Source: Peristeroidobacter soli (lineage in GTDB: Bacteria; Pseudomonadota; Gammaproteobacteria; Steroidobacterales; Steroidobacteraceae). Taken from it: a DNA stretch of 64,000 nt. This document shows, one piece after another, positions 14,357 to 31,922 of the stretch. Each line of letters opens with the position of its first letter. Within the stretch, counting starts at the first letter, position 1. Below the pieces are notes generated by a model. It saw nothing but the letters and a program-made list of their open reading frames with translations. It made no database searches and was not told the DNA's origin. The stretch lies in contig NZ_RYEV01000006.1 of NCBI RefSeq assembly GCF_004138485.1, positions 248,001 to 312,000 on the forward strand. The letters are read 5' to 3'. Both the position numbers and the translations under genes were made by a program.

Positions 14357-14385
14357 TTGCCATGCTCCTCCTGGCTGGATAGTAT
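14357..14385 (+). promoter_or_regulatory. Sigma70-type promoter of the DUF885-epimerase operon
   Basis: TTGCCA (14357-14362) and TAGTAT (14380-14385) are separated by 17 bp, 34 bp upstream of the start codon at 14420. The -10 hexamer overlaps the left half of the palindromic operator at 14381, so repressor binding there would block polymerase. Confidence 0.55.
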
Positions 14386-14395
14386 TTCGTATACT
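14381..14395. promoter_or_regulatory. Operator site 1 of the hydroxyproline-glycoprotein island
   Basis: AGTATTTCGTATACT differs at one position from the complement of site 2 (23552-23566). It is an imperfect palindrome with AGTAT/ATACT arms, 24 bp upstream of the DUF885 start and overlapping a promoter -10. The same core is found before the deaminase/oxidase genes and the TonB receptor gene. The regulator is inferred to be the GntR protein at 31232-31882. Confidence 0.65.
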
Positions 14396-14419
14396 AAATG
14401 CCAGTGAGGAGCGTCCGGC

Positions 14420-16189
14420 ATGCGCTGGATTTTTGCGACGGCCGGAGCCCTCTGGCTATGCGCGCCCGCGGTTTTCGCCCAATCGAATGGCGCCGATGCC
14501 GCGCGTCGGCTCAACACGATCTACCAGTCCGAGTGGGAATGGTGGAAGAACGAGATGGCCGAGGAGCCCGACGACGAGCGGCCGGGCGAGGAGTCGGATC
14601 ATCTGGCTCGCGTCGATGAGGCCAGTCAGCAGGCACGGCTGAAGCATCTGCAGGCGGCGCTCGCGGGGGTGAGTCGAATCAGCACCGACTCGCTGTCCGC
14701 CGAGGAGAAAATCAACGCGGAAATATTCCGCACCATTCTCGAAGAGCGCATCTCCGACCTGCGCTTCAAAACCTATCAGGCGCCGTTCAACGCCGATTCG
14801 TTCTTCTGGACCGAATTCACGCCGCGCGAAGGATTTCCGGATCGAGAAGCCTATCGACGTTATCTCGGACGCCTCGCGGATGTGTCGCGCTTCTTCGACG
14901 AGCACATCGCCAACATGCGCGCGGGGCTGAAGCGCGGCTTCACGGTGCCGAAGGTTTCGGTCATGGGCCGCGACAAGACGATCGAGCCGTATCTCGCCAG
15001 CGACGATTCGAATCCGCTGTATCTGCCGTTCACGCAGATGCCGACCAACATTCCTGCCGCCGATCAGGAGCGCATGCGCGGTGAGGCGCGGGCGGTGCTC
15101 ACCAGGCAAGTCGTGCCGGCGTATCAAAAACTGCTGGATTTCATTCGCAACGAGTATCTGGTGAAGGCACGCACCAGCATCTCGGCGTCGAAGCTGCCGG
15201 ACGGTGCGGCGTTCTATCAAGCGCGCATCGAGAAGTTCACGACGCTCCAGCTGACCCCGCCGCAGATTCACGAGATCGGTTTGAGCGAGGTCGCGCGCAT
15301 CAAGGCGGAGCAGGAAATCACCATGCGCAAGGCGGGATTCACGGGCACGTTGCCCGAGTTCTACCAGTTCCTGCGCACCGATCCGCAGTTCTACGCCAAG
15401 ACGCCGCATCAGCTGATCGCGGAGGCTTCTTATATCGTCAAGAAGGCGGATCTGAAGCTCAAGGACACCATCGGTACGTTGCCGCGCTTCCGGCACGGCA
15501 TTCTGCCGGTGCCCGATGCGTTGGCGCCGATCTACACCGGCGGCCGCGGCGGGCTCGAGAGCTGCCTGTTCAATACATATAACCTGCCGGCGCGGCCGCT
15601 CTACACGTTGCCGTCGCTGGTGCTGCACGAGTGCACGCCGGGCCATAGCTTTCAGGCGGCCCTGGCGCTGGAAGCGCCGGAGCGCCCGAAGTTTCGCAAC
15701 GATGTTTATTTCTCGGGCTACGGCGAAGGCTGGGGTCTGTACACGGAATGGCTGGGTCGCGTCATGGGCATCTACGAGACGCCTTACGAAGAATTCGGCC
15801 AACTCACTTATGAGATGTGGCGTGCCGCGCGGCTCGTCGTCGACACCGGTATCCATCACTACGGCTGGACTCGCGATCAGGCGCTGCAGTACATGAAGGA
15901 CAACGTGGCGCTGTCGACGCACGAGATCACGACCGAAGTCGATCGTTACATCGCCTGGCCGGGTCAGGCAGTTGCGTACAAGCTGGGCGAATTGCAGATC
16001 CGCCGGCATCGTCGTGAAGCGGAGCAGGCACTCGGTCCGAAGTTCGATCAACGCAAATTCCACGACGCCATCCTCGCGCTCGGTGCGGTACCGTTGCCCG
16101 TGCTGGAGCAACGCATGGCGCAATTCATCGCGGATGGCGGCGAGAATCCGCCGACACCGTCGCGCGACCCCGCCGACCACAGCAATTGA
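14420..16189 (+). CDS. Exported DUF885 family protein, putative metallopeptidase
   Basis: 589 aa. A signal peptide (MRWIFATAGALWLCAPAVFAQ) is followed by a mostly helical DUF885 region. The family hallmark HECTPGH (a HExxPGH zinc-peptidase-like motif) lies near residue 400, and a downstream Glu-rich helix (GYGEGWGLYTEWLG) is also conserved in the family. DUF885 proteins are predicted peptidases without a settled substrate. It is the first gene of an operon with 4-hydroxyproline 2-epimerase (11 bp downstream) and a DUF5695-like protein. I infer release of hydroxyproline or short Hyp peptides, but this is untested. Operator site 1 lies just upstream. Confidence 0.85.
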   Translation: MRWIFATAGALWLCAPAVFAQSNGADAARRLNTIYQSEWEWWKNEMAEEPDDERPGEESDHLARVDEASQQARLKHLQAALAGVSRISTDSLSAEEKINAEIFRTILEERISDLRFKTYQAPFNADSFFWTEFTPREGFPDREAYRRYLGRLADVSRFFDEHIANMRAGLKRGFTVPKVSVMGRDKTIEPYLASDDSNPLYLPFTQMPTNIPAADQERMRGEARAVLTRQVVPAYQKLLDFIRNEYLVKARTSISASKLPDGAAFYQARIEKFTTLQLTPPQIHEIGLSEVARIKAEQEITMRKAGFTGTLPEFYQFLRTDPQFYAKTPHQLIAEASYIVKKADLKLKDTIGTLPRFRHGILPVPDALAPIYTGGRGGLESCLFNTYNLPARPLYTLPSLVLHECTPGHSFQAALALEAPERPKFRNDVYFSGYGEGWGLYTEWLGRVMGIYETPYEEFGQLTYEMWRAARLVVDTGIHHYGWTRDQALQYMKDNVALSTHEITTEVDRYIAWPGQAVAYKLGELQIRRHRREAEQALGPKFDQRKFHDAILALGAVPLPVLEQRMAQFIADGGENPPTPSRDPADHSN

Positions 16190-16200
16190 TCGGTACGACT

Positions 16201-17127
16201 ATGGACAGCATCCGAATTCTGGATTCCCACACCGGCGGCGAGCCGACGCGTCTGGTGCTCGAAGGCGGGCCGGACCTGGGCGCAGGTCCGCTCGACCAGC
16301 GGTTGCGGCGTTTCAGCGAACGTTTCGACGCGTTCCGTTCCGCCATCGTCAACGAGCCTCGCGGCAGCGACACGGTCGTCGGTGCCTTGCTGTGCAAGCC
16401 GCACCGTGCGGAATGCGACATCGGCGTGATCTTCTTCAATAACGTGGGCTATCTCGGCATGTGCGGTCACGGCACCATCGGCGTGATCGTTTCTTTGGCG
16501 TACCTCGGCATGTTGAAGCCGGGTGCGGTGAAGATCGATACGCCGGTCGGCGTCGTCGAAGCGCAGTTGCGCCCGGATGGATCGGTCGCTGTCGCGAATG
16601 TTCCCAGCTATCGCAAGGCGCGTGCGGTGAGCGTGGATGTGCCGGGCATTGGCGTCGTCACGGGCGATGTGGCGTATGGCGGCAACTGGTTCTTCCTCGT
16701 CGAGCACGATCGTATTCCGCTGCGACTCGCGAATGTCGAGCCGCTCACCGATCTCGCCTGGCGCATTCGCCAGGCGCTGAATGCGCAGGGTCATCCGGAA
16801 GTCGATCATGTCGAGCTGGTCGGCGCGACGCCGACGGCGAGCAGTCGGAACTTCGTGCTTTGCCCCGGCAAAGCGTATGACCGCTCTCCCTGTGGCACGG
16901 GCACCAGCGCGAAGCTCGCGTGTCTCGCTGCTGATGGCAAGCTCGCGGAAGGTGAGGAGTGGACTCAGGAGAGCGTGCTCGGGAGCGTATTCAAAGGTCA
17001 CTATCGGTGGCTGGATCGCGAGAAAGGCACGATCGCGCCGACCATCATGGGCACGGCGCACGTGACTGCCGATGCGAAGTTGCTGCTCGATCCAAAAGAT
17101 CCATTCTGCTGGGGCATCCGAGGCTGA
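16201..17127 (+). CDS. 4-hydroxyproline 2-epimerase (proline racemase family)
   Basis: 308 aa from the ATG at 16201 (MDSIRILDSHTGGEPTR). Both catalytic Cys of the epimerase/racemase type are present: Cys88 in MCGHGTIG and Cys231 in SPCGTGTSAK. This argues against the trans-3-hydroxyproline dehydratase branch, where the first Cys is replaced. The DSHTGGEPTR start is typical of the family. It converts trans-4-hydroxy-L-proline to cis-4-hydroxy-D-proline in the cytosol, the first catabolic step. The next two enzymes of the pathway are encoded nearby (22289 and 23592). It sits between the DUF885 gene (11 bp) and the DUF5695-like gene (3 bp), so it is surely co-transcribed with both. Confidence 0.92.
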   Translation: MDSIRILDSHTGGEPTRLVLEGGPDLGAGPLDQRLRRFSERFDAFRSAIVNEPRGSDTVVGALLCKPHRAECDIGVIFFNNVGYLGMCGHGTIGVIVSLAYLGMLKPGAVKIDTPVGVVEAQLRPDGSVAVANVPSYRKARAVSVDVPGIGVVTGDVAYGGNWFFLVEHDRIPLRLANVEPLTDLAWRIRQALNAQGHPEVDHVELVGATPTASSRNFVLCPGKAYDRSPCGTGTSAKLACLAADGKLAEGEEWTQESVLGSVFKGHYRWLDREKGTIAPTIMGTAHVTADAKLLLDPKDPFCWGIRG

Positions 17128-17130
17128 CCG

Positions 17131-19869
17131 ATGAGGAATGTCGTGATCGCCGTGCTGCGCGTCGGCGCGGTGCTGTTGTTCGTTCAGCCCTTGGCGATGG
17201 CGAGCACGGTGCTCAACGTGCAGAGTCGCGATTTCGACATCGTGCTCGACGGGCCGTCGCAAACGCTGGTGTCGCTGAAGCCGAAGCAGGGCGGCCGTGC
17301 GGCGGATGAAGGCGCCGGTGCGCGCGTCCCTGGATTCGATTTTGCGCCGTCGAAGTTGAGCAAAGCTCGCAGCGGCGATGGTTACTACCAATTGGGCGAT
17401 CTCGACCTGCGACTGCGCGTGGCGGGAGAAACTCAATGGCAGGACTACTCCACGGCCTATCGACGAGCGCCGGCTCGTGAGCTGCCGCGCGATGCGGCGA
17501 CGCTGGCTGCTGCTGAGCTTTCTTTGGGATTGCCAAGTAATCTGGGTCTGCGCGTCGTGCGGCGCTGGCAAGTCGGCGAGGGTGGTCATCTCTCGCTGCG
17601 GTTCGAGCTGACCAATGCGGGCAAGCGCGACGTTGAGCTCGGCGGCGTCGGGCTCGCGATGGTGTTCGACAATGTGTTGTCGGATCGTTCACTCGCGCAG
17701 GCCCACACCGAAGCGAGCTTCGCCGATCCCTACATCGGGCTCGATGCCGGCTATCTGCAAGTCACGCGACTCAACGGCCAAGGTCCGGCGCTGATCGTCA
17801 CAGGCGAAAGCGGCACGCCGTTCGAGGCGTACCGGCCCATCGCCGATAAGAAAGATGACAGCGGCAAGGCGCTGCTGCTCAACGACGCCACCAAGCGCGG
17901 TCAGACGTTCGAAGGCTTCTACAGCTGGATGGCTGTGAGCCAAGGCTTCGTGGAGCGTGAATGGAAGAACGCTCAGCAATGGAATGAGCCGACGGTCGTG
18001 ACGCTTCGACGTGGCGAGACGCGTCGGTTCGGCGTCCAGTTCCTGCTCTCCAAATCGATCCGGGAGATCGAGAGCACGCTGGCAGCGAATGCTCGGCCGG
18101 TGGCCGTGGGCATTCCGGGCTATGTGCTGCCGACGGATCTCGCCGGCGATCTTTGGGTGTCATCGCGTCAGGCTATTCGTTCGATTGCTGCTGCTCCCGT
18201 CGGCGCACTGGAAGCCGTGGCAGCTGGAGGCGTGCAGGGCTGGTCGAGATACAAAGTGACCGGCCGGCAATGGGGACGGTCACGGCTCACCATTACCTAT
18301 GCGGACGGCACGCGCCAGGCGATTCATTACTTCGTCACCAAGCCGAGCGCCACCGTGCTCGCGGACCTGGGACGATTCATTGCCACCAGACATTGGTTCG
18401 ACGATCCCTCCGATCCCTTCAAGCGCGGCCCGTCGTTCATGACGTTCGATCGCGAGAGAAATGCGTTGGTATTGCAGGACCCGCGAGTGTGGATGGCGGG
18501 GCTGAGCGATGAGGGTGGCGCCGGCGCGTGGCTCGCGCTCGTGATGAAACAACTCGGCGCGCCGGACGCCTCCGAGATCGAGAAGTTCGAGCGCTTCGTC
18601 ACGCAGACGCTGGATGGTCGCCTGCAGGTCAATCAAGGGCCGGACAAGTTCGGCGTCCGCAAGAGCCTGTTCTATTACGAGCCACAGGCGCCACGAGGCG
18701 TGCGCTATGACCCGAAGCTCGATTGGAGCACCTGGTCGGCATGGCGGAAGTCGCAAGCAGACTCGGTGGTGCGGTCGTTCAACTATGTGCACGTCGCCGC
18801 CGCGCATTGGGTTTTGTATCGGCTGGCCCGCTACCACGAGGGGTTGGTGAAGGCGCACGACTGGCGGTGGTATCTGGATCGCGCGTATCAAACAGCGTTG
18901 GCGATGCCTCGGCTCGCACCGGAGTATGCGAAGTTCGGCCAGATGGAGGGCGAGGTCTTCGTTGAAATCCTGCGCGATTTGCAGGACGAGGGCATGAAGG
19001 CAGAGGCGTCGCAGCTCGAGCAGGCCATGCGCCAGCGCGCGGATCATTGGGCTGCCGAGGAGTATCCATTCGGCAGCGAAATGCCGTGGGACTCGACCGG
19101 GCAGCCCGAGGTGTATGCGTGGATGCGGTACTTCGGAAACGCGCCGAAGGCAGATCTGACGCGTGAAGTCATCCTCGGCTACGATCCCACGATTCCGAGC
19201 TGGGGCTACAACGGCAACGCGCGGCGTTACTGGGACTTCATGTACGCCGGCAAAACTGCACAGCTCGAACGTCAGCTCCATCACTACGGGTCGGCGAACA
19301 ATGCGTTGCCTCTGCTCGATTCATTCCGCCGCGACCCTCGGGACATTCACTTGCTACGAGTGGCGTATGGCGGCCTGATGGGCACGCTCACCAACATCGA
19401 TCAGGAGGGCTTCGGTGCGGCGGCGTTTCATTCCAATCCGGACCTGATGAGATTCGATGCCTACAACGGTGACTATGGCTCGGCGTTCTACGGTTACGCG
19501 TACGGCATCGGCAGTTATCTGGCGCGGCATCCGGTGTTCGGCAATGTCGGCTTCGGCGGCTCGACGCAAGAGCGAGGCTCTATCGTCAGCTTCGCGCCGC
19601 GCGATGGTTTCAGGACGCGTGTGTTTCTCGCCGAGCCGGGGTTGTGGCTGACCTTGGATGGTGGAAAGTTCGCGCGCGTGGAATATGACAGGGGCAGCGG
19701 AAATGTCAGCGTGGTACTGGATGCCGCCGATTCGTTCACCTCGAAGGCGCATCTTCGAGTCGAGGGCTCTCGCTATGAGCCGAACGCCACGCTGAGTCAG
19801 GAGCGCGGCCGTTACGTGATTCCGCTCGGCAAGAACGAAATGTCGGTGCAGTTGAGGCCGGCGCGCTGA
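17131..19869 (+). CDS. Exported DUF5695-like protein, candidate glycoside hydrolase
   Basis: 912 aa. The signal peptide (VAVLLFVQPLAMA-like core) ends near residue 24. The first 320 residues look beta-sandwich-like (galactose-mutarotase-type strands). Residues about 400-800 are helical and rich in Trp/Tyr/Asp pairs (DWSTWSAWRK, WRWYLDRAYQ, GYDPTIPSWGYNGNARRYWDF), as in alpha/alpha-barrel glycosidases. I assign DUF5695 from general resemblance only, with moderate certainty. It is fused into the hydroxyproline epimerase operon by a 3-bp gap, which suggests an extracytoplasmic substrate bearing hydroxyproline sugars. No catalytic residues can be named with confidence. Confidence 0.72.
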   Translation: MRNVVIAVLRVGAVLLFVQPLAMASTVLNVQSRDFDIVLDGPSQTLVSLKPKQGGRAADEGAGARVPGFDFAPSKLSKARSGDGYYQLGDLDLRLRVAGETQWQDYSTAYRRAPARELPRDAATLAAAELSLGLPSNLGLRVVRRWQVGEGGHLSLRFELTNAGKRDVELGGVGLAMVFDNVLSDRSLAQAHTEASFADPYIGLDAGYLQVTRLNGQGPALIVTGESGTPFEAYRPIADKKDDSGKALLLNDATKRGQTFEGFYSWMAVSQGFVEREWKNAQQWNEPTVVTLRRGETRRFGVQFLLSKSIREIESTLAANARPVAVGIPGYVLPTDLAGDLWVSSRQAIRSIAAAPVGALEAVAAGGVQGWSRYKVTGRQWGRSRLTITYADGTRQAIHYFVTKPSATVLADLGRFIATRHWFDDPSDPFKRGPSFMTFDRERNALVLQDPRVWMAGLSDEGGAGAWLALVMKQLGAPDASEIEKFERFVTQTLDGRLQVNQGPDKFGVRKSLFYYEPQAPRGVRYDPKLDWSTWSAWRKSQADSVVRSFNYVHVAAAHWVLYRLARYHEGLVKAHDWRWYLDRAYQTALAMPRLAPEYAKFGQMEGEVFVEILRDLQDEGMKAEASQLEQAMRQRADHWAAEEYPFGSEMPWDSTGQPEVYAWMRYFGNAPKADLTREVILGYDPTIPSWGYNGNARRYWDFMYAGKTAQLERQLHHYGSANNALPLLDSFRRDPRDIHLLRVAYGGLMGTLTNIDQEGFGAAAFHSNPDLMRFDAYNGDYGSAFYGYAYGIGSYLARHPVFGNVGFGGSTQERGSIVSFAPRDGFRTRVFLAEPGLWLTLDGGKFARVEYDRGSGNVSVVLDAADSFTSKAHLRVEGSRYEPNATLSQERGRYVIPLGKNEMSVQLRPAR

Positions 19870-19894: not shown

Positions 19895-22279
19895 TCAAGC
19901 CGAGACGGTGGCGTTCTTCGTGTAGATGCGACAGCCGAACACCGGGCCCGCCGTGTTGCCCGGTTCGGGTTCGAAGCGCACCAGTACGCTTTGCTTGCCT
20001 CGCGTGAGCGCTTCTGGAATCTCATAGTCCACGTCGAAAAACACCGGCTTGTCCGGACGCAGCGCTTGCGTCGCGATCCGCTGGCCTTCGACCAGCACGT
20101 GGAATTTCCGCGCGCGCTCGTCCGCCCAATAGGTCGCCTGCAGAATCAACGGACCTGGCTTGACCTTCATGCGGAACGCAAAGAAGCCGCCCGTGCGAGC
20201 ATCTCGACCCTGGCGGCCGCGATAGACGACTGGATAGGAAATATCCGAGGTCAGCTCGTGATCGCGCTCCGGCTGCATCTCGCCCAGATGCATCACGTCG
20301 ACCGAGCGGGCGGCGAGTTCCTTCTGTCGCGCCTGCTCGGCATTGAACGAACGTTCCTCGTTGACCCACTCGGCGTCGGTGAAGCGGCGGAAGTAAACAG
20401 CGCTGCGACGATGATAGTTCTTATAGAACGGGGAGAACGTGAGCGCCGCGGGCCTGACGATGCTGTCCGCTCGATACACCGCCTGCTGAGCATCAACCGG
20501 CTTGAAGTCGGCGAGCAGGTCGGCGCCCACGAGTGCCGGTGCCGCGGCTTCGAATGGCTGATCGGCGGAGCCGAGATCGCCTGCAAGCACCATCGGGCCG
20601 CGCAAGATCGCGATCGTGCTGTCATCGCCCGGCGTCGCTTCGATTCGAAGTTCCAGCGGCAATGTGAATGCCAGCGCATCGCCTTCCCGCCAACGACGGC
20701 GGACGATCAGGTAGCCGGCGTCCTTCGTCGTTTCGGCAGGTTTGCCATTGACGGTCAGCTGAGCGTCCCTGGCCCAGCCCGGAACGCGCAGGGCGACGGC
20801 GAACTCCTGCGGCTTCTGCAACGACGCAACCTTGACGTTCACTCCGCCTTCGTACGGATACCGCGTCGTCATTTCCAGCTGCGCGCCACGCGCTTTCCAG
20901 GTCGCGCGCGAAGGGATGAACAGGTTGACCAGCAACGTGTCACCGTTCTCCCACCAGATCGATTCGCCATGCTTGGAGTGGCTTTCCATACCCGAGCCGA
21001 CGCAACACCAGAAGCTGTCGGTGGGTGAGGAGAACTCGCGATTGATGCCGGACATCAGCGGCGTCATGTACGTGAACATGCCGGTCGCCGGATCCTGATG
21101 CGCCAGGATGTGATTGAGATGCGCGCGCTCGTAGTAGTCGAACAGCGCGCCCGAGGGTTGCCACGCGAACAGATGACGCGTCAGCTTGAGCATGTTGTAC
21201 GTGTTGCAGGCTTCGCAGGTCTGTTCGGTGATATGTCTCGAGACCGTGCGCGGTTCGGAGAAGTATTCGCGATCCGAGTTGCCGCCGATGACGTAGCTGT
21301 GCTCGGTCGTGACCGTCTTCCAGAAGAAGCGGGGCGCGGTGGCCTGATCGCTCTTGCCTGTGATCTCGTGCAGGCGGGCGAGGCCGATGAGTTTAGGAAT
21401 CTGGGTGTTCGCGTGACGTTGGGCCAGCTCATCGCGCTGAGCGGTCAGCGGATCGAGCACGCGCTTGTGATAGAGACGCTCGGCAAGTTGCAGCCAGCGG
21501 CGATCGTTCGTGCGGGTGTAGAGCTCCGCGAAGCTTTCGTTGATGCCGCCGTGCTCGCAATCCAGGACCGTCTGGACTTGCTCGTCATTCAGCGCGCTGA
21601 AGACTTTCTCGATGTAGCCGCCGAGGCCGACGGAGACTGCGATGGCGCGCTTGTTGCCGCCGCAGTACGTGTCGACGTCCATCAGGCCGGCAAACAGCTT
21701 GTGCCAGTTGTAGAGCGGCACCCAGCAGCCGTTGAGGTCGAAGCCTGCCGAGCGGATCTCGCCACGCATGATCTCGGGAAAGATCTCTTTGCCGTCGACG
21801 ATCGTGCCGTCCTTGCGCTTGCGCGTGAAGCCCGCGACGTAGCCATCGCCTTGCTTGGCTTGAACCTCGGCCAGTTCCGCGACGATATATTCGGCACGGC
21901 GCTTTGCCTCGGGCTCGCCGGTTTGCGCATGGATCAACGCCAGCGCGGAGAGATAGTGACCGAGGCTGTGGCCGGCAATCGTGTCCGCTTCCCAGCCGCC
22001 ATACACCTCACCTTTTGGCGTGAGCCCGGCGAACTTGCGGAAGTTGTGGAGCAGGCGGTCCGGCTCCAGCGCCAGCAGATATTTGCGATTCGCTGCCACT
22101 GCATCGGCGAACGGCGACGGCAATAACCGCACGTCGCCGAGCGGCAATGACTTCGCGGTTCCAGGCAGCACACCCGTGTTCGCCCAGGCGCCCGCCCAAG
22201 GCAGTCCGGCGCAGAGCGCACCGGCCGCTGCACCTTTCAGCAGTGCGCGACGATCGGTGATCAGCGTAGATCGAGTCAT
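19895..22279 (-). CDS. GH127-type beta-L-arabinofuranosidase (DUF1680 family), exported
   Basis: 794 aa with a twin-arginine-like signal (DRRALLKGAAAGALCAGLPWAGAWA). The alpha/alpha barrel family is recognised by EHGGINESFAELY, YVIGGNSDREYF and the zinc-thiolate site: E-A-C in EQTCEACNTYNML and the Cys pair in WCCVGSGMESHSKHGE, 67-68 residues apart, matching the Glu/Cys and Cys/Cys set of HypBA1. Known members (GH127, related GH146) release beta-linked L-arabinofuranose from hydroxyproline-bound arabinosides. Its start is 9 bp from the end of the D-hydroxyproline dehydrogenase gene, so the two share one transcript. Confidence 0.9.
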   Translation of the reverse strand: MTRSTLITDRRALLKGAAAGALCAGLPWAGAWANTGVLPGTAKSLPLGDVRLLPSPFADAVAANRKYLLALEPDRLLHNFRKFAGLTPKGEVYGGWEADTIAGHSLGHYLSALALIHAQTGEPEAKRRAEYIVAELAEVQAKQGDGYVAGFTRKRKDGTIVDGKEIFPEIMRGEIRSAGFDLNGCWVPLYNWHKLFAGLMDVDTYCGGNKRAIAVSVGLGGYIEKVFSALNDEQVQTVLDCEHGGINESFAELYTRTNDRRWLQLAERLYHKRVLDPLTAQRDELAQRHANTQIPKLIGLARLHEITGKSDQATAPRFFWKTVTTEHSYVIGGNSDREYFSEPRTVSRHITEQTCEACNTYNMLKLTRHLFAWQPSGALFDYYERAHLNHILAHQDPATGMFTYMTPLMSGINREFSSPTDSFWCCVGSGMESHSKHGESIWWENGDTLLVNLFIPSRATWKARGAQLEMTTRYPYEGGVNVKVASLQKPQEFAVALRVPGWARDAQLTVNGKPAETTKDAGYLIVRRRWREGDALAFTLPLELRIEATPGDDSTIAILRGPMVLAGDLGSADQPFEAAAPALVGADLLADFKPVDAQQAVYRADSIVRPAALTFSPFYKNYHRRSAVYFRRFTDAEWVNEERSFNAEQARQKELAARSVDVMHLGEMQPERDHELTSDISYPVVYRGRQGRDARTGGFFAFRMKVKPGPLILQATYWADERARKFHVLVEGQRIATQALRPDKPVFFDVDYEIPEALTRGKQSVLVRFEPEPGNTAGPVFGCRIYTKNATVSA

Positions 22280-23551: not shown

Positions 23552-23566
23552 AGTATACGATATACT
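23552..23566. promoter_or_regulatory. Operator site 2 in the divergent dehydrogenase/deaminase promoter region
   Basis: AGTATACGATATACT is a palindrome with perfect 6-bp arms (AGTATA/TATACT) around CGA. Each arm reads TATACT on one strand, so it could also serve as the -10 box of a promoter in each direction. It lies 25 bp from the deaminase start and 33 bp from the dehydrogenase start. It is the best-formed of three related sites in the island. Confidence 0.72.
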
Positions 23567-24539: not shown

Positions 24540-25952
24540 ATGGGAATATTCGGCCGGCGTAAGTCGCTGCACCACTCGGACGACCTGGACGAGGGCAAGC
24601 GACTCGCGAAGACTTTGAGCTGGCCGCATCTGATCGCGCTAGGTGTCGGTGCCATCGTCGGCACCGGCATCTACACACTGACCGGCGTCGGTGCCGATCG
24701 AGCCGGCCCGGCGGTGATCTTCGCGTTCGCCATTGCCGGCGCCGTGTGTGCCTGCGCCGCGCTTGCGTACGCCGAAGTGGCGACGCTGATGCCGGCTGCT
24801 GGCGGCGCGTACACGTACACCTATGTCGCTATCGGCGAGCGACTGGCCTGGGTGGTGGGCTGGAGCTTGATCCTGGAATATTCGCTCGCCTGCAGTACTG
24901 TCGCGGTTGGATGGTCTGCGTATCTGGTCGGATGGCTGCAAACCGCAGGCATCCATCTGCCTCCCGAATTACTCAGCGGTCCACACGGCGGAGGCATCAT
25001 CAACCTGCCGGCCGTGCTCGTCGCACTCATCATCACCGGCATGCTGGTCGCGGGCACGCGGGAGAGCGCGACGTTCAATATTTTTCTGGTGATCATCAAG
25101 CTGACGGCGCTGACTTGTTTCGTCGCCATCGCCCTGCCGGCGTTCAATGCGGGCAATCTCGAGCCGTTCATGCCTTATGGCTTTGCCAGTCACGAGGACG
25201 GTGGGGCGAAGCGGGGTGTGATGGCGGCGGCGGCCATCGTGTTCTTTGCGTTCTATGGCTTCGATGCCGTCGCCACGTCGGCGGAGGAGGCGAAGAATCC
25301 GGGGCGGGATTTGAAGATTGGCATCATTGGCTCGATGGCGGTTTGTACGCTGATCTACATGTTGGTGGCGGTGTCGGCGGTGGGCGCGGTGAAACATACC
25401 GAGCTGGCTGCGTCGGCTGAGCCGTTGGCGTATGTTTTGCGATCACTTCAGCATCCGGTCGCGGCGTGGGCGGTTGGGTTGGCGGCACTGATTGCTCTGC
25501 CCTCGGTGATTCTGGTGATGATGTACGGGCAGAGTCGCATTTTCTTCGTGATGGCCCGCGATGGGCTGCTGCCGAAGCGATTGAGTGCGGTGTCGGCGAA
25601 GACGGGGACGCCGGTGTTGATCACGGCGGTGACGGGGACCTTTGTGGCGTTCGCTGCGGGGTTGTTTCGTCTGGATGAGATTGCCGAGCTGGCCAATGCG
25701 GGGACGTTGCTGGCGTTTGTGACGACGGCGGCGTCGATGATGGTGCTGCGGCGGACTGCGCCCGATACGCCGCGCGTGTTTCGATGTCCTGCGCCGAATG
25801 TGGTGGGGATGTTGGCGATTCTTGGTTGTTTCTATCTGTTCCTCAGCCTGCCTGGGCTCACTATTCAGCGCTTCCTGCTGTGGAATGCGGTTGGCTTTGC
25901 GATTTATTTGCTGCTGCAGTGGTTGCGGGGGCGGGTTGTCGCTGTGGCCTGA
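24540..25952 (+). CDS. APC-superfamily amino acid permease
   Basis: 470 aa with about 12 predicted transmembrane helices. The first helix carries the unwound substrate-site motif GVGAIVGTGIYTLTG typical of YfnA/CAT-type transporters, preceded by an amphipathic N-terminus (KSLHHSDDLDEGKRLAKTL). GGAYTYTYVAIGE and FFAFYGFDAVATSAEEAKNPGRDLKIGI are further family signatures. GGGGAG precedes the ATG. As second gene after the Pyr4H2C deaminase it most likely imports hydroxyproline or proline-like amino acids; the substrate is inferred from context only. Confidence 0.9.
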   Translation: MGIFGRRKSLHHSDDLDEGKRLAKTLSWPHLIALGVGAIVGTGIYTLTGVGADRAGPAVIFAFAIAGAVCACAALAYAEVATLMPAAGGAYTYTYVAIGERLAWVVGWSLILEYSLACSTVAVGWSAYLVGWLQTAGIHLPPELLSGPHGGGIINLPAVLVALIITGMLVAGTRESATFNIFLVIIKLTALTCFVAIALPAFNAGNLEPFMPYGFASHEDGGAKRGVMAAAAIVFFAFYGFDAVATSAEEAKNPGRDLKIGIIGSMAVCTLIYMLVAVSAVGAVKHTELAASAEPLAYVLRSLQHPVAAWAVGLAALIALPSVILVMMYGQSRIFFVMARDGLLPKRLSAVSAKTGTPVLITAVTGTFVAFAAGLFRLDEIAELANAGTLLAFVTTAASMMVLRRTAPDTPRVFRCPAPNVVGMLAILGCFYLFLSLPGLTIQRFLLWNAVGFAIYLLLQWLRGRVVAVA

Positions 25953-26642: not shown

Positions 26643-26657
26643 GTTATATCGTATAAC
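26643..26657. promoter_or_regulatory. Operator site 3 upstream of the TonB receptor/alpha-galactosidase operon
   Basis: GTTATATCGTATAAC is a palindrome with GTTATA/TATAAC arms and the same ATATCGTATA core as sites 1 and 2; it differs from them only symmetrically at the outer bases. A possible -35 TTGTAA (26627-26632) lies 19 bp before TATAAC (26652-26657). The leader to the start codon is about 80 nt. Confidence 0.6.
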
Positions 26658-26736
26658 GTATTTGATTTATTAACTCAGACATGTCTTAAATGTCAGCAAG
26701 CTCGACTGGCTGAAAACAACATCGTTGGGGGCTGAC

Positions 26737-29712
26737 ATGCACACTAAAAACATAGGACTGCCAGTGTCGGCAGTCCGCTTGAAACTGGCGTCGTTGAATG
26801 GCAAGGCTGCAATCGCCGCGTGCGCGATCGGATTGTTTGCTCCGATCGGCAGTCATGCTCAACAACAGGGAGCCGAAGGGGCTCCGCTCGAGGAAGTTGT
26901 CATTACCGGCTCGCGTATCAAGCGGGCCAATCTGGAAACGGCGAGTCCGATTACCGCGTTGCCTCAGGAAGAGTTCAAATATCAGGGCACGTCGACGGTG
27001 GAATCCGTCTTGAATCGCATGCCTCAGTTCACCGCGGACTCGAACGAAAACGGCTCGAACGGTTCCGACGGCACGGCTCGTGTGAATCTTCGCAATTTGG
27101 GTTCGTCACGCGTGCTGGTGCTCATCGATGGTCAGCGGATGCTGCCCGTCGAAACCGCGGACGTGAATTTCATTCCCAGCGCGTTGATCGAACGCGTCGA
27201 CGTGGTCACGGGCGGCGCCTCCGCCGTGTACGGCTCCGACGCCGTCGCTGGTGTGGTGAACTTCGTGCTCGACAAGAATCTCGAAGGCGTGCGTTTCTCC
27301 GCGCAATACGGTTCCGCCTGGCACAGCAACGACAATTCCTACGCGCGTTCCGTCGTCAAGGACGCGAATTACAACCTGGCCAAGTCATCGGTGTGGGACG
27401 GCGGACGGGCCGACTTCAACGTGGCGATGGGCTTGAACAGCGCGGACGGCAAAGGCAACGCGACATTCTACCTCGGCTATCGCAAGCTCGAGCCCGTGAC
27501 TCAGGACATGCGGGACTATTCCGCGTGCGGCCTGAATCTTGGCGGGGATGCCGATCGACTGGTGTGCGGCGGATCGAGCAACAATCAGTGGGGCAGCTTC
27601 GTGATGCTGGGCGGGCCGAATAACGGCCGTACGTTCAACAACACGAAGGACGGCGCCGCCACCTGGGTGCCGTACGACAGCTCGTTTCTGTACAACTACG
27701 CGCCGACCAACTACATCCAGCGCCAGGACAAGCGCATCACCGCCGGCGGCTTCGCGCACTACGACTACAACGATCACGTGAAGTTGTATGGCGGCGTGAT
27801 GTTCATGGACGACCACACGTACTCGCAGGCGGCACCCAGCGCGTACTTCCAGGGCAATGTCTATCCCATCAACTGCGACAACCCGTTGATGTCCGCGCAG
27901 CAGGCGTCGATTCTTTGCGGAGCGGCCGCGGGCACGCCGACGAACATCAATACGTTCGTCGGTTATCGCTTCGCCGGTGCCGGCGGGGCGCGACGGGATG
28001 ATCTGCGCCACACCGACTATCGATTGAACTTCGGCTCGCGAGGTGACATCGCCAAGGGCTGGACTTACGACACCAGCTACCTGTACTCCACCGTCATCTA
28101 CGACGAGAGCTACAAGAACGACCTCGACCTGACCAAAGGCGCTCGCGCCTTGCAGGTCGTGAGTGTGGACGGTGTGCCGACGTGTCGCTCGGTCGTCGAT
28201 GGCACCGATCCCGATTGCGTGCCCGCCAACGTGTTCAACGCCTTTGGCATCAGCGACGACGCGTATGGATACATGCTGACGCCGACGTTCACGCACGGCG
28301 TGCAGACGGAGAAGGTCGCGAACCTGACCGTCAACGGCGATCTGGAGCAGTACGGCTTGCGCAGCCCGCTGGCCTCCAGCGGCATTGCCATCGCGACCGG
28401 CGCTGAATATCGCACCGAAGAGCTGACGTTCGAGGCCGACGCGCTGGCGCAGTTGAAGGGCACGAAGGAGAACGCCGGCAAGTTCGATGTGAGGGAGCTG
28501 TTCATCGAAGCGGACGTGCCGCTGGTGTCGAACAAGCCGTTCGTCGATGAGCTGGCCATCAACCTCGGTTATCGTTACTCAGACTATTCGATCCAGGGTG
28601 GCACGGGCTTCACGGCGGACACCTACAAATTCGAGCTGCGTTACGCGCCTGTGTCCTCGTTCCGCCTGCGTGGCAGTTACAACCGGGCGGTGCGTGCGCC
28701 GAATATCACTGAGTTATTCGCCGCGCAGGCACTCGGCAACGTCGCGGCCCAGGATCCGTGCTCGGGCGCTGATCCGACATCGAGCCTGGAGGACTGCATC
28801 CGCAGCGGTGTGACCCAGGCGCAGTACGGATTCATTCCGGAGTGCCCGGCGGACACTTGCGTGACGCTCGGTGGCGGCAACCTCGCTCTGCAGCCTGAGA
28901 TCGCCGACACCTACACCTACGGCTTCGTGCTGGAACCCTCGTTCCTGCCGGGCTTCACGTTCTCGGCGGACTATTTCGACATCTTCGTGGATGGTTACAT
29001 CGGCGCGGTCGATGCGCCGACGGTCATCAATCAATGTATCCAGACCGGCTCGCAGTTCTTCTGCGATCTGTTCCATCGCGACCCCGCGTCGGGTGTGTTG
29101 TTCGGCACGAACGGTTACATCACGGCCACCAACCAGAACACCGGCTACCTGCAGACCTCCGGCATGGACTTCACGTCCAGCTACGGCTTCGATCTGGGCA
29201 GCATTCTGCCCGGCTCGAGGGAGGTGGGTTCGATCGATGTGTCCTTTGTCGGCACCTGGCTGAACAGCCGTCGTATCGAGCAACTGCCGGGCCTGGGCAG
29301 CTACAACTGCGTCGGCTTGTTTGGTCCGACCTGCGGTCAGCCCACGCCGACCTGGCGTCACAACGTGCGTGCGACCTGGACCTCGCCGCAGCGGACCACC
29401 ACTGTGTCGGCCAACTGGCGCTACTTCGGCGCGGCCTCGTTGTCCTCGAACCAGAGCAATGAGTTCCTGCAGGGAGACGATTACATCTCCATCAACCGTC
29501 GCATCGCTGCGTACAACTACTTCGACCTGGCCGCGACCTGGAAGTTTGTGGATTCGGTCGAGTTCCGCGCCGGCATCAACAACGTGTTCGATCGGGATCC
29601 GCCGGTGATCGCCGCGGGCCTGCTCAGCTCGTTCGGCAACGGCAACACCTATCCGGGCGTCTACGATCCGATGGGTCGGCTGGTGTACTTCGGCATGACG
29701 GTGGAGTTCTGA
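26737..29712 (+). CDS. TonB-dependent receptor (outer membrane importer)
   Basis: 991 aa from the ATG at 26737 with a G-rich RBS (GGGG, 6 bp). A signal peptide ends at SHAQQQ, and the TonB box is EEVVITGSR. The plug domain (about 60-170) contains LRNLGSSRVLVLIDGQRM and GGASAVYGSDAVAGVVNFVLDK. A long 22-strand barrel follows, ending in an aromatic C-terminus (MTVEF). It belongs to the large-receptor group common in polymer-degrading gammaproteobacteria for oligosaccharides or peptides. The alpha-galactosidase gene begins 6 bp after its stop, and operator site 3 precedes it, tying import to the hydroxyproline island. The substrate is inferred as a glycosylated fragment. Confidence 0.92.
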   Translation: MHTKNIGLPVSAVRLKLASLNGKAAIAACAIGLFAPIGSHAQQQGAEGAPLEEVVITGSRIKRANLETASPITALPQEEFKYQGTSTVESVLNRMPQFTADSNENGSNGSDGTARVNLRNLGSSRVLVLIDGQRMLPVETADVNFIPSALIERVDVVTGGASAVYGSDAVAGVVNFVLDKNLEGVRFSAQYGSAWHSNDNSYARSVVKDANYNLAKSSVWDGGRADFNVAMGLNSADGKGNATFYLGYRKLEPVTQDMRDYSACGLNLGGDADRLVCGGSSNNQWGSFVMLGGPNNGRTFNNTKDGAATWVPYDSSFLYNYAPTNYIQRQDKRITAGGFAHYDYNDHVKLYGGVMFMDDHTYSQAAPSAYFQGNVYPINCDNPLMSAQQASILCGAAAGTPTNINTFVGYRFAGAGGARRDDLRHTDYRLNFGSRGDIAKGWTYDTSYLYSTVIYDESYKNDLDLTKGARALQVVSVDGVPTCRSVVDGTDPDCVPANVFNAFGISDDAYGYMLTPTFTHGVQTEKVANLTVNGDLEQYGLRSPLASSGIAIATGAEYRTEELTFEADALAQLKGTKENAGKFDVRELFIEADVPLVSNKPFVDELAINLGYRYSDYSIQGGTGFTADTYKFELRYAPVSSFRLRGSYNRAVRAPNITELFAAQALGNVAAQDPCSGADPTSSLEDCIRSGVTQAQYGFIPECPADTCVTLGGGNLALQPEIADTYTYGFVLEPSFLPGFTFSADYFDIFVDGYIGAVDAPTVINQCIQTGSQFFCDLFHRDPASGVLFGTNGYITATNQNTGYLQTSGMDFTSSYGFDLGSILPGSREVGSIDVSFVGTWLNSRRIEQLPGLGSYNCVGLFGPTCGQPTPTWRHNVRATWTSPQRTTTVSANWRYFGAASLSSNQSNEFLQGDDYISINRRIAAYNYFDLAATWKFVDSVEFRAGINNVFDRDPPVIAAGLLSSFGNGNTYPGVYDPMGRLVYFGMTVEF

Positions 29713-29718
29713 TTCGAC

Positions 29719-31248
29719 ATGCTGAGAGCGATTGTTTCGATGGTTCTGATGACCGGCGCGCTGGTTTCCAGCGCGTCGGAGCGGCGGTCCCCGGTGGGCG
29801 GCGCGTGGGTCTTCGACAACGCGCCGCCTTATCCTGGCGTGACGATGCTGGAGGTCACGACGCGCGGCGGTCGCACGACAGGGAACGTCACGACGGCCTG
29901 GTACGGGCCGATGGTCATGCAGAATGTGAAAGTCGAAGGCGATCAGGTGAGCTTCGACCTGCGCAATCTGAATGACAAGGCCAATGCCACACGTCGATGG
30001 ACGGCGAGGTTGAGCGGCGATCGGGTCTCTCTCGTCGGCGACATGTGGTACGCGCATGTCGAGCAGGCCGGCCGTCGCGCTTCAGCCGATGACGTGACGG
30101 CGCGGCGCTTCAAATTCACCGAATTGCCGGCGCTCGGAACGATCGCACCCGATGGTCAGGCGAAGGCGCCGCCGATGGGCTGGAGCAGTTGGAATAAATT
30201 CGCCGAACATATCGACGACGCCACCGTGCGTGCGATGGCCGATTATCTGGCGAGCTCCGGTCTGCGCGACGCAGGTTATATCCACGTGAACATCGACGAC
30301 GGCTGGCAAGGCCGGCGTGACAGCAGCGGCGTCCTGCAGCCGAACGAAAAATTCCCGGATATGAAGGCGCTGGCCGACTACGTGCACAGTCGCGGTTTGA
30401 AGTTGGGGATTTACAGCTCGCCAGGACCGAGAACCTGCGCGGGCTACCAGGGCAGCTATGGTCACGTCGCCCAAGACGCGCGCACATTCGCCGCGTGGGG
30501 CATCGACTATCTCAAATACGATTTGTGCTCCGGCGAATGGTTCTACTCCGACGCCGACACGGTAAAGCGCACCTACTACGAAATGGGCGCGGCGTTGCAG
30601 GCCACCGGGCGGCCCGTGATTTATTCCCTATGCGAATACGGCCGCTTCGATGTGGGCGAGTGGGGCCGTTCGGTGGGCGGACATCTGTGGCGAACCACCG
30701 GTGACATCACCGATCAATATTCGAGCATGGCGGCGATAGGTTTCGAGAAGAACGGCAACGCGGCTCATGCGGGGCCGGGCGGTTGGAACGATCCCGATAT
30801 GCTGGAGGTCGGCAATGGCGGCATGTCGGACGACGAATACCGGACGCACATGACGTTGTGGGCGATGTCGGCGGCGCCGTTGCTGATGGGGCACGATTTG
30901 CGCCAGACCAGTCCTGCGATGCTGGAGTTGCTGACCAATCGCGAAGTGATCGCGGTGGATCAGGATGCCAGAGGCGTGCAGGGCAGGGCGGTTTACAAGG
31001 ACGGTGCCACTGAAATCTGGGCCAAGCCGCTGCGGGATGGCTCGGTCGCGATCGCGTTGTTCAACCGGAGTGAGTCGGCGGCGCAGATGTCATTCGCACC
31101 GGCCGACGCGGGGCTGGCATCGCTGCAGTCCATTCGCAATCTGTGGCAGGCGACGGAGCTGAAGGTGGGCGAGACGCGCTTCACTGTGCCGGCGCATGGC
31201 GCCGTGATGCTTCGGGTTCGCGGGCAGCCGCTCAGTCGGAATCTTTGA
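29719..31248 (+). CDS. GH27 alpha-galactosidase, exported
   Basis: 509 aa. A signal-like N-terminus (IVSMVLMTGALVSSAS) is followed by about 130 residues of beta-rich domain. The GH27 barrel begins at PPMGWSSWNKF (about 151); Asp268 in YLKYDLC is the expected nucleophile and Asp329 in WRTTGDI the acid/base, with GGWNDPDML following. A C-terminal beta domain is present. GH27 removes alpha-D-galactose, and some members remove beta-L-arabinopyranose. It is co-transcribed with the TonB receptor (6 bp). In an extensin-degrading locus, serine-linked alpha-galactose would be a fitting target (inference). Its last 17 bp overlap the 3' end of the convergent GntR gene. Confidence 0.92.
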   Translation: MLRAIVSMVLMTGALVSSASERRSPVGGAWVFDNAPPYPGVTMLEVTTRGGRTTGNVTTAWYGPMVMQNVKVEGDQVSFDLRNLNDKANATRRWTARLSGDRVSLVGDMWYAHVEQAGRRASADDVTARRFKFTELPALGTIAPDGQAKAPPMGWSSWNKFAEHIDDATVRAMADYLASSGLRDAGYIHVNIDDGWQGRRDSSGVLQPNEKFPDMKALADYVHSRGLKLGIYSSPGPRTCAGYQGSYGHVAQDARTFAAWGIDYLKYDLCSGEWFYSDADTVKRTYYEMGAALQATGRPVIYSLCEYGRFDVGEWGRSVGGHLWRTTGDITDQYSSMAAIGFEKNGNAAHAGPGGWNDPDMLEVGNGGMSDDEYRTHMTLWAMSAAPLLMGHDLRQTSPAMLELLTNREVIAVDQDARGVQGRAVYKDGATEIWAKPLRDGSVAIALFNRSESAAQMSFAPADAGLASLQSIRNLWQATELKVGETRFTVPAHGAVMLRVRGQPLSRNL

Positions 31249-31882
31249 GCTGAGCTCGAAGATCCTTGAGGGTGCCCTGGATGTGCTCTTTCAACAGCTT
31301 TTCGACCTTGCGCTTGTCACGGTCGAGCCAGGCGCCGAAGAGAGCCTCGTGTTCGATGTGAGCGCGGGCGTCGCGGCCGGCCGGTTCGAGGTGCGCGATG
31401 ACATAACGTTCAGCGAGCACCGCGAGGCGTTCGACGAGTTGGGTGGTGAGCACCTTGCGGCCGGGTTCCACCAGCGCGATATGAAACTGGCGGTTGCGAA
31501 CCGCCACGTCGGCGAGGTTGCTGTGAGCGGCGGTGTCGAGCGCGGTGAACGCCTGCTTTGCGAGCGCCCGGTCGTCGTCCGTCGCCACACCCGATGCATA
31601 GGCCGCCGCTTGCGGTTCGATGGAAAGGCGCAACGCGTAGATCTCGTCGACCTGATCGCGCGACATCGCCTGCACGTAATAGCCGCGATTCGGGTGATTG
31701 ATCAGCAGGCCTTCCTGCTCCAGCCGGGCCAGCGCTTCACGCAGCGGGATCTTGCTGATGCCGAGCTCGTTGGCCAGCGCGTCCTGCCGGATGGGCTCGC
31801 CGTTGGGCAGCTGACCCTTGAGGATCTGCTCGCGGACGATTTCGAACACGCGATCGGAAAGCGTGCGGACGACGATGCTCAT
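31232..31882 (-). CDS. GntR-family (FCD/FadR type) transcriptional regulator
   Basis: 216 aa if started at MSIVVRTLSDRV (31882), where family similarity begins; in-frame ATGs at 31927 and 32005 would add 15 or 41 residues of non-family sequence. The winged helix (residues 8-75) has the GntR signature LANELGISKIPLREALARLEQEGLL. The C-terminal FCD domain (about 85-210) carries the metal/ligand His/Asp pattern (RLSIEPQAA, NRQFHIAL, EHEALFGAWLDRD). FCD regulators respond to organic acids or amino-acid-derived ligands. It adjoins the hydroxyproline island and is the best candidate to bind the three palindromes. A weak version of the site lies 26-40 bp upstream of this start. Confidence 0.88.
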   Translation of the reverse strand: MSIVVRTLSDRVFEIVREQILKGQLPNGEPIRQDALANELGISKIPLREALARLEQEGLLINHPNRGYYVQAMSRDQVDEIYALRLSIEPQAAAYASGVATDDDRALAKQAFTALDTAAHSNLADVAVRNRQFHIALVEPGRKVLTTQLVERLAVLAERYVIAHLEPAGRDARAHIEHEALFGAWLDRDKRKVEKLLKEHIQGTLKDLRAQLKDSD

Positions 31883-31907
31883 GGCGGTGAAGACGCGGTC
31901 CTCGGAT

Positions 31908-31922
31908 GGAATACCGTAGACG
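31908..31922. promoter_or_regulatory. Weak candidate operator before the GntR gene
   Basis: The stretch GAATACCGTAGAC (31909-31921) matches 10 of 13 central positions of the consensus from sites 1 and 2 (GTATATCGTATAC). It lies 26-40 bp upstream of the start codon at 31882. It would allow autoregulation, but three mismatches make chance possible. Confidence 0.3.

What the first reader, a model, noticed from the sequence alone, without database searches (positions are those of the whole stretch)
14381..31922. Candidate utilisation locus for hydroxyproline-rich plant glycoproteins (extensin/AGP)
Seen: one island combines GH127 beta-L-arabinofuranosidase, GH27 alpha-galactosidase, a DUF5695-like candidate glycosidase, an HExxPGH peptidase, 4-hydroxyproline 2-epimerase, DadA-like dehydrogenase, DHDPS-type deaminase, amino-acid permease, TonB receptor and GntR regulator. 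The GH127 and D-hydroxyproline dehydrogenase genes share one operon 9 bp apart. Known: GH127/GH146 act on hydroxyproline-linked arabinose, extensins carry serine-linked alpha-galactose, and the three enzymes form the hydroxyproline pathway. Inference: the cell uses both the sugar and the amino acid of the same glycoprotein. I know of GH clusters for Hyp-arabinosides, but not of one joined to hydroxyproline catabolism and a shared operator.
Basis: partly seen in the sequence, partly recalled or inferred. Interest (0 to 1): 0.85.

Follow-up and report, generated by a model that had tools for sequence, protein, structure and literature searches.

The report
Locus for eating plant wall glycoprotein
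A bacterium carries, under what looks like one shared DNA switch, genes that should strip arabinose from hydroxyproline-rich plant wall proteins and burn the hydroxyproline itself, and the same linked and co-switched set recurs in several other genera.

Summary
The window (closest relatives: Steroidobacter, Peristeroidobacter) carries a GH127/GH146-family arabinofuranosidase, GH27, DUF5695, DUF885 (HECTPGH), a hydroxyproline-epimerase-type racemase, DAO, DHDPS, APC permease, TonB receptor and GntR/FCD regulator. A shared operator, AGTATACGATATACT, lies before DUF885, DAO/DHDPS and the TonB receptor, with a weak copy before GntR. Of 59 non-Duganella GH127 loci, 30 have at least two of the epimerase, dehydrogenase and deaminase genes within 10 kb, against 0 of 20 Duganella-type loci, in varying order. 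An operator matrix trained only on GH127 promoters finds a site before 18 of 18 newly fetched deaminase genes, 6 on another contig. In the own genome, the one other close operator sits before a DPP-IV gene 65-69% identical to those inside relatives' clusters. The exact GH127-dehydrogenase pairing is narrow, and the fourth enzyme is not in the locus. I read it as a regulon for using hydroxyproline-rich glycoprotein. Eight searches of open papers showed none joining both halves. Substrate, reactions and regulator binding are inferred.

The parts
14381..14395 (.). operator copy 1 (AGTATTTCGTATACT), 24 bp before the DUF885 start
   Evidence: a copy at the matching place in L008 and L009
14420..16189 (+). 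DUF885 metallopeptidase-like protein with a signal-peptide-like N-terminus, HECTPGH at residue 403
   Evidence: Pfam PF05960 477 bits; residues; N-terminus; homologue near GH127 in 49 of 59 non-Duganella loci
16186..17127 (+). 4-hydroxyproline 2-epimerase-type proline racemase family protein, dyad Cys93/Cys236
   Evidence: Pfam PF05544, NCBIfam NF052296 404 bits, cut-off 450, PDB 2azp; dyad
17131..19869 (+). DUF5695 protein with a signal-peptide-like N-terminus, function unknown; candidate glycoside hydrolase
   Evidence: PF18951 1177 bits; near GH127 in 35 of 59 non-Duganella loci; no PDB relative detected
19895..22279 (-). GH127/GH146-family beta-L-arabinofuranosidase, RR-type signal sequence, Zn-site pattern E356, C358, C425, C426
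   Evidence: PF07944, PF20736, PF20620; PDB best 5opj 472 bits, GH127 entries 4qjy 93 and 3wkw 60 bits; residues
22289..23518 (-). DAO-family FAD dehydrogenase, candidate cis-4-hydroxy-D-proline dehydrogenase
   Evidence: PF01266 158 bits; no NCBIfam model over its cut-off; otherwise context
23552..23566 (.). operator copy 2 (AGTATACGATATACT) between the divergent DAO and DHDPS genes
23592..24494 (+). [quoted passage not shown]
   Evidence: PF00701; G-x-x-G-E, Tyr and Lys motifs; relatives 64-94% identical at or near GH127 loci
24540..25952 (+). APC-family amino-acid permease, candidate hydroxyproline importer
   Evidence: PF13520; below all NCBIfam cut-offs shown; near GH127 in 21 of 59 non-Duganella loci
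26643..26664 (.). operator copy 3, two overlapping sites before the TonB receptor
   Evidence: scores 17.2 and 16.9 with the GH127-trained matrix
26725..29712 (+). TonB-dependent receptor
   Evidence: PF00593, PF07715; 17 of 18 counted relatives carry the operator upstream
29719..31248 (+). GH27 alpha-galactosidase-family enzyme with a signal-peptide-like N-terminus
   Evidence: PF16499; PDB best 6f4c and 1uas, named alpha-galactosidase; GH27 arabinopyranosidase 4nx0 lower, 111 bits
31232..31882 (-). GntR/FCD regulator, start placed at the internal ATG 31882 (longest ORF reaches 32005)
   Evidence: PF00392 and PF07729 whole in the shorter form; starts
31908..31922 (.). weak operator copy 4, upstream of the proposed GntR start (inside the longest ORF)
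   Evidence: score 12.7; a site scoring 10.4 stands before GntR in L008

Best explanation
This is a regulon for eating hydroxyproline-rich plant glycoprotein (extensin-type, possibly also AGP). Glycopeptides enter through the TonB receptor. Exported enzymes remove the sugars: the GH127/GH146-type enzyme takes beta-L-arabinofuranose off hydroxyproline, GH27 takes alpha-galactose, and DUF5695 is an unassigned candidate glycosidase. DUF885 and, elsewhere in the genome, DPP-IV and prolidase-type enzymes cut the Pro/Hyp peptides. Hydroxyproline enters the cytoplasm by the APC permease, then goes through epimerase, DAO dehydrogenase and DHDPS-type deaminase to alpha-ketoglutarate semialdehyde. The GntR/FCD regulator binds the AGTATACGATATACT operator on both the sugar and the amino-acid genes, probably as a repressor relieved by hydroxyproline or a derivative. 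Shown by sequence: gene content, linkage, and the shared operator across genera. Inferred: substrate, compartments, each reaction, regulator identity and inducer. A further inference: this genome has no AraA match but has an arabinose-oxidation-type locus with a divergent aldehyde dehydrogenase, so arabinose and hydroxyproline would meet at the same semialdehyde and may share its dehydrogenase.
For: Pfam content. Of 59 non-Duganella GH127 loci, 30 have at least 2 of the three Hyp genes within 10 kb. Of 31 lacking the deaminase there, 23 were searched genome-wide: 13 have it on the same contig about 10-29 kb away, 6 on another contig, 4 none found. Order varies. The epimerase of most other loci is 32-41% identical to the window's; its one scanned representative passes NCBIfam's 4-hydroxyproline epimerase cut-off (530 of 376 bits), with the same Cys-Cys dyad. 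Operator at score 14: TonB receptor 17 of 18, DHDPS 15 of 21, DAO 9 of 23, DUF5695 15 of 35, against 1 of 228 non-GH127 Duganella genes; 18 of 18 newly fetched deaminase genes. The only other own-genome operator with up to 1 mismatch precedes a cluster-type DPP-IV gene. The enzyme XeHypBA1 of this superfamily cleaves Araf-Hyp (PMC6085000, PMC10850190, passages). Arabinose-type locus.
Against: No activity, binding or growth data. Epimerase, permease and DAO miss the NCBIfam cut-offs. The closest solved GH is, as I recall, BT0349, an arabinan-type enzyme. GH27 near only 7 of 59. No GH121 or GH43 among window ORFs scanned. In a same-family genome (L007, 14 kb fetched) GH127, GntR, GH27 and DUF5695 occur with no Hyp gene and only sites scoring 10.3. 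DUF5695 is in 2 of 100 family genomes, the window's own included. Duganella-type GH127 relatives have no Hyp genes nearby and no operator at score 14 (0 of 19; 1 of 19 at score 10). Other genes of the non-Duganella loci carry sites in 18 of 303. Operator seeds came from the window's own sites, and 30 of 59 loci are Sphingomonas, so counts are not independent.
Confidence: 0.75

Rival explanations
1. A hydroxyproline and Pro/Hyp-peptide regulon of general use (free hydroxyproline, collagen or any Hyp peptide), with plant-wall glycosidases merely placed nearby.
For: Published HypR regulons of Alteromonadales include collagenases and prolidases (PMC5343134 section 11). M24 and DPP-IV peptidases recur here. 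In 6 genomes the hydroxyproline genes stand on a contig other than the GH127 one.
Against: A site stands before 36 of 60 GH127 genes (the training set) and 15 of 35 DUF5695 genes, and before the deaminase also in the 6 genomes where it is on another contig.
Confidence: 0.1
2. The sugar enzymes serve pectic arabinan or rhamnogalacturonan, and hydroxyproline genes are co-regulated only because both signal plant debris.
For: Nearest solved enzyme is, as recalled, the arabinan-type GH146 BT0349 (PMC10850190 passages). GH43 recurs in 17 loci, and its scanned representative weakly matches endo-arabinanase models. GH88, DUF4861 and GH10 lie next door in the window. A GH28 gene starts on the other side of the third own-genome operator.
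Against: The recurring partners include Pro-type peptidases and hydroxyproline genes, and the operator ties GH127 to the hydroxyproline deaminase in particular. The GH43 subfamily was not determined; a GH43 of the same length acts on Ara4-Hyp in Xanthomonas (PMC6085000).
Confidence: 0.12
3. Arabinogalactan protein rather than extensin is the main target.
For: GH2 (13 loci) and GH43 (17 loci) recur in relatives, and some GH43 enzymes are AGP exo-galactanases; AGPs also carry beta-arabinofuranose (PMC10850190 passages).
Against: Weak: the GH43 subfamily was not determined, and only the commonest neighbour clusters were scanned. The GH127-superfamily enzyme XeHypBA1 has Ara-Hyp activity.
Confidence: 0.15

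Closest known systems
HypR regulon for hydroxyproline/proline use in Proteobacteria (Leyn et al. 2016, PMC5343134; section 11 read, other passages seen)
   Same: GntR regulator, epimerase, oxidase, deaminase; prolidases, permeases and a TonB transporter as lineage-specific members; in Alteromonadales an upstream protein source (collagenases) is included
   Different: No glycosidase is named in the section read and 'arabinofuranosidase' is not in its main text; its core hypH (aldehyde dehydrogenase) is not in our locus; the source protein here would be plant glycoprotein
hypBA1-hypBA2-hypAA genes of Bifidobacterium and Xanthomonas (Nakamura et al. 2018, PMC6085000; passages seen)
   Same: beta-L-arabinofuranosidase on Ara-Hyp; relatives here also carry a GH43, representative 528 aa
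   Different: No hydroxyproline catabolism in the passages seen; no GH121 found among window ORFs scanned; DUF5695 present instead; regulation of two of the genes there by HrpX
Genome-neighbourhood study of the proline racemase superfamily (eLife 2014, PMC4113996; passages seen)
   Same: Epimerase, D-amino acid oxidase, DHDPS and aldehyde dehydrogenase as the pathway
   Different: Words beginning arabino- or glycos- do not occur in its main text
GH146 beta-L-arabinofuranosidases BT0349 and Bll3HypBA1 (PMC10850190; passages seen)
   Same: Catalytic and beta-sandwich domains, Zn-site pattern
   Different: Those sit in RG-I or AGP gene clusters in the passages seen
In silico extensin use by Latescibacteria (PMC4454575; passages seen)
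   Same: GH127 taken to act on extensin, with peptidases in the same genome
   Different: Gene inventory; no hydroxyproline catabolism, linkage or shared operator in the passages seen

Membership tests
Hydroxyproline catabolic cassette (4HypE, DAAO, DHDPS, alpha-KGSA dehydrogenase) | First three enzyme families together | tested here: met
   relatives
Hydroxyproline catabolic cassette (4HypE, DAAO, DHDPS, alpha-KGSA dehydrogenase) | Aldehyde dehydrogenase in the locus | tested here: not met
   Absent among window ORFs scanned and among the neighbour clusters scanned; 31 Aldedh matches elsewhere in the genome, one in an arabinose-type locus
Hydroxyproline catabolic cassette (4HypE, DAAO, DHDPS, alpha-KGSA dehydrogenase) | Cys-Cys dyad of an epimerase, not Ser/Thr of a dehydratase | tested here: met
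   Cys93/Cys236; six relatives printed, all Cys-Cys, five of the other epimerase type
Hydroxyproline catabolic cassette (4HypE, DAAO, DHDPS, alpha-KGSA dehydrogenase) | Activity on trans-4-hydroxy-L-proline | not testable with these tools
   needs assay
GH127/GH146 beta-L-arabinofuranosidase | GH127 catalytic domain and E-x-C / C-C Zn site | tested here: met
   site pattern as described in PMC10850190
GH127/GH146 beta-L-arabinofuranosidase | Closer to GH146 than to GH127 | tested here: inconclusive
   5opj 472 bits; 4qjy 93 and 3wkw 60 bits; that 5opj is BT0349 and 3wkw HypBA1 is recalled; no tree made
HypBA/HypAA HRGP glycosidase set | GH43 plus GH121 plus GH127/146 | tested here: not met
   Only the GH127/146 member found among window ORFs scanned
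SusCD-type polysaccharide utilisation locus | SusC and SusD pair | tested here: not met
   TonB receptors but no SusD among window ORFs scanned
HypR orthologue | Orthology and binding motif of published HypR | not tested
   No HypR sequence or motif at hand; only the GntR/FCD architecture is known

The most novel reading that the evidence does not exclude
An unnamed class of regulon, spread over Alpha- and Gammaproteobacteria, consumes both halves of Hyp-arabinosides, with DUF5695 as a new glycoside hydrolase family that does the work of GH121 (or another step on Hyp-linked glycans), and with arabinose and hydroxyproline both ending at alpha-ketoglutarate semialdehyde and sharing its dehydrogenase.
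Probability: 0.35. Interest if true: 0.75.

Novelty: new variant of a known kind. Interest (0 to 1): 0.62.

Why it matters
Extensins and AGPs are major plant wall glycoproteins, and little is known of how soil and leaf bacteria recycle them (general knowledge, not from a call). A regulon that ties sugar removal to hydroxyproline use gives ready candidates: an operator, a TonB receptor, and two families without an assigned role here (DUF5695, DUF885). All can be tested in named, cultured relatives such as Steroidobacter agaridevorans or Sphingomonas and Asticcacaulis strains.

Tried and rejected
Tried without result: profile search of DUF5695 against PDB sequences (best E 0.23) and DUF5695 against GH127 by profile-profile (probability about 1%), so its fold class stays open. 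Papers on DUF5695 (one paper on fungi, listing only) and DUF885 (six, listing only) gave no function. Rfam and tRNA scans of the window were empty. A TTGT-type GntR box search gave only sites inside genes; the AGTATA palindrome is the candidate site.

Considered and rejected: that the linkage is chance (recurrence in varying order); that the epimerase is a trans-3-hydroxyproline dehydratase (Cys-Cys dyad; NCBIfam ranking); that the second own-genome epimerase locus (L006) is the true hydroxyproline locus (it has M24, S9, S15 and a TonB receptor but no DAO or DHDPS hit and no operator).

Literature searches for the combination: open PMC text only; one search found 241 papers and listed 20. Opened in part: PMC4113996, PMC5343134, PMC10850190, PMC4494728, PMC6085000, PMC4454575. 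Listing only: PMC5928203, PMC7263609, PMC12312396, PMC11163044, PMC6608401, PMC4364671, PMC11602996, PMC7226260 and the others listed. In what I saw, none joins hydroxyproline catabolism to Hyp-arabinosidases. Subscription papers and preprints were not covered.

Full report
Observation. Nine bases lie between the DAO and GH127 genes on the minus strand. DUF885 carries HECTPGH. The coordinates 14381-31922 are the outer ends of the first and last copies of a palindromic operator. The copies at 23552 (AGTATACGATATACT) and 14381 (one mismatch) are the only ones in the window with up to 2 mismatches, against 0.1 expected. A double site lies at 26643-26664 before the TonB receptor, and a weak copy at 31908 before the GntR gene if the regulator starts at its internal ATG.

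Who it is. The window is part of a 9.37-Mb genome. The closest GH127 relatives, 92% identical, are in Peristeroidobacter agariperforans and Steroidobacter agaridevorans, with nearly the same gene order. In 100 genomes of the same family DUF5695 was found in 2, one of them the window's own, so the locus is patchy there.

Conservation. By my label 20 are Duganella-type and 59 are not; 30 of the 59 are Sphingomonas. In the 59, homologues of window genes above identity limits that I set after seeing one search are near GH127 as follows: DUF885 49, DUF5695 35, DAO 29, epimerase family 29, GntR 29, DHDPS 28, TonB receptor 23, APC 21, GH27 7. At least two of the three hydroxyproline genes are near in 30 of 59, any one in 34. 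In the 20 Duganella-type loci none of the nine is near. A whole-genome search of 40 genomes with the deaminase at E up to 1e-60 gave, for 25 non-Duganella genomes, a 66-94% identical gene in 21; for 15 Duganella-type genomes only 41-43% matches in 5 and none in 10. Putting together for the 59: 28 have the deaminase within 10 kb, 13 more on the same contig (equal contig length) at about 10-29 kb, 6 on another contig, 4 none found, 8 not searched. By my estimate a single-copy gene would fall within 10 kb by chance in about half a percent of 4-Mb genomes.

What varies supports the link. Gene order around GH127 differs between and within genera, so the set has been reshuffled yet stayed together. 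The epimerase of most other loci is only 32-41% identical to the window's. The one representative scanned, from Sphingomonas deserti, scores 530 bits for NCBIfam's 4-hydroxyproline epimerase (cut-off 376); the window's type scores 404 (cut-off 450). Two different enzymes with the same Cys-Cys dyad seem to fill one slot. The tight GH127-DAO pair is not general: it was seen in two Steroidobacter-type loci and, with a 35-36% identical DAO, in two Nitrospirillum loci.

More members. Clustering of ORFs from the loci and Pfam on representatives show an M24 peptidase with creatinase/prolidase N-domain in 32 loci, Ldh_2 in 24, a DPP-IV type S9 peptidase in 20, GH43 in 17 and GH2 in 13. Proline-type peptidases beside hydroxyproline genes and arabinosidases point to a Pro/Hyp-rich glycoprotein. 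The GH43 representative weakly matches endo-arabinanase models and is 528 aa long, the length of the Xanthomonas GH43 that acts on Ara4-Hyp; its subfamily was not determined.

Operator. Sites with up to 2 mismatches number 49 in the non-Duganella loci and L007 (2.4 expected) and 0 in Duganella-type loci (0.4 expected). A matrix was trained only on 43 sites before non-Duganella GH127 genes. At score 14 it finds sites before: TonB receptor 17 of 18, DHDPS 15 of 21, GH127 36 of 60 (training set), GntR 13 of 30, DUF5695 15 of 35, DAO 9 of 23, DPP-IV 4 of 20, DUF885 9 of 52, GH2 1 of 9, M24 2 of 32, Ldh_2 1 of 24, epimerase 1 of 25, GH43 0 of 17, APC 0 of 17, GH27 0 of 6; other genes 18 of 303; Duganella-type other genes 1 of 228 and GH127 0 of 19. 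Epimerase and APC genes are probably read from promoters further upstream. In 21 further fetched regions, 18 hold a deaminase gene over 55% identical, and 18 of 18 have a site within 200 bp upstream; in 6 of these (L106-L111) the deaminase lies on a contig of another length than the GH127 contig. Limits: the seed half-sites came from the window's own DHDPS and DUF885 operators, some GH127 promoters of the same genomes were in the training set, and most loci are from few genera. That GntR/FCD is the binder is inferred from its recurrence beside the sites.

Test in the own genome. With up to 1 mismatch the operator occurs at three places, two here and one at C1:1974128; the reversed control pattern occurs at two. 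The third place lies between a GH28 gene and a DPP-IV gene, provided that both start at their internal ATGs, where signal sequences begin; the longest DPP-IV ORF would run over the site. The DPP-IV protein is 65-69% identical to four inside Sphingomonas and Pacificimonas clusters. The motif thus led to a gene that relatives keep inside the cluster.

Enzymes. The GH127-domain protein matches solved 5opj with 472 bits, and the GH127 entries 4qjy with 93 and 3wkw with 60. Glu338, E356, C358, C425, C426 and an RR signal pair are invariant in 21 aligned sequences, the window's included. XeHypBA1 of Xanthomonas, filed as GH127 in one paper and GH146 in a later one, cleaves Araf-Hyp (PMC6085000 and PMC10850190, passages). 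I did not have its sequence, so orthology is untested. DUF5695 has no relative detected among PDB sequences and none to GH127 by profile comparison.

The missing step. No aldehyde dehydrogenase was found among the scanned window ORFs. The genome has no AraA_N match, 7 IlvD/EDD-type dehydratases and 31 Aldedh matches. One locus, C2 at about 517-536 kb, holds a dihydroxy-acid dehydratase, an AraD1/GguC protein, a Gfo/Idh-type oxidoreductase, a divergent 526-aa Aldedh, an arabinofuranosidase, a GntR/FCD gene, ABC transport genes and the second GH127-family gene. From recalled biochemistry, oxidative arabinose use can end at alpha-ketoglutarate semialdehyde, the product of the hydroxyproline pathway. 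I propose, without proof, that one dehydrogenase serves both.

Against. No experiment; names below cut-offs; GH27 rare; one same-family genome shows GH127, GntR, GH27 and DUF5695 without hydroxyproline genes in the 14 kb fetched and without a good operator (L007); pectin and xylan genes lie beside the locus; GH43 could act on arabinan or AGP; extensin and AGP cannot be told apart.

Novelty. Hydroxyproline regulons with GntR control, prolidases and even collagenases are published (PMC5343134), and Hyp-arabinoside glycosidase genes are published (PMC6085000). Their union under one operator did not show in eight searches of open papers. I file it as a new variant of a known kind, with DUF5695 as the main unknown.

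Noticed in passing
window 32045-41852: Next to the locus: second TonB receptor, endonuclease/phosphatase-family protein, DUF4861, GH88-type hydrolase and GH10 gene, which look like a separate plant-wall set.
   Followed up: partly
window 9453-14336: An S9 peptidase and two beta-lactamase-family ORFs lie upstream in the same direction and are kept in L008 and L009; the two beta-lactamase-family ones had no hit in the other loci.
   Followed up: partly
window 26291-26406: A 56-nt, 77% complementary inverted repeat in the 772-bp gap before the TonB receptor.
   Followed up: no
L006 8263-13761 (own genome C3): A second 4-hydroxyproline epimerase-type gene beside an M24 peptidase about 68% identical to those of the relatives' clusters, an S9 peptidase and a TonB receptor, with an S15 peptidase further on, and no operator.
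   Followed up: partly
L005 8223-11419 (own genome C3): Two neighbouring proline racemase-family genes, the first short, closest to trans-3-hydroxyproline dehydratase but below cut-off.
   Followed up: partly
L107 and L063 (Steroidobacter gossypii): The cluster is split: GntR, DUF885, epimerase, DAO, DHDPS and APC on one contig, GH127 beside its own GntR on another, with operators before the deaminase and before GH127.
   Followed up: partly
Duganella-type loci among L013-L077: Their GH127 relatives (62-67% identical) have no hydroxyproline genes nearby and no operator at score 14; a CE2-type esterase gene is near in 12 loci, suggesting another role.
   Followed up: no
L116 9309-18950 and L117 1509-8116 (own genome C2): Arabinose-oxidation-type locus with a second GH127-family gene.
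   Followed up: partly
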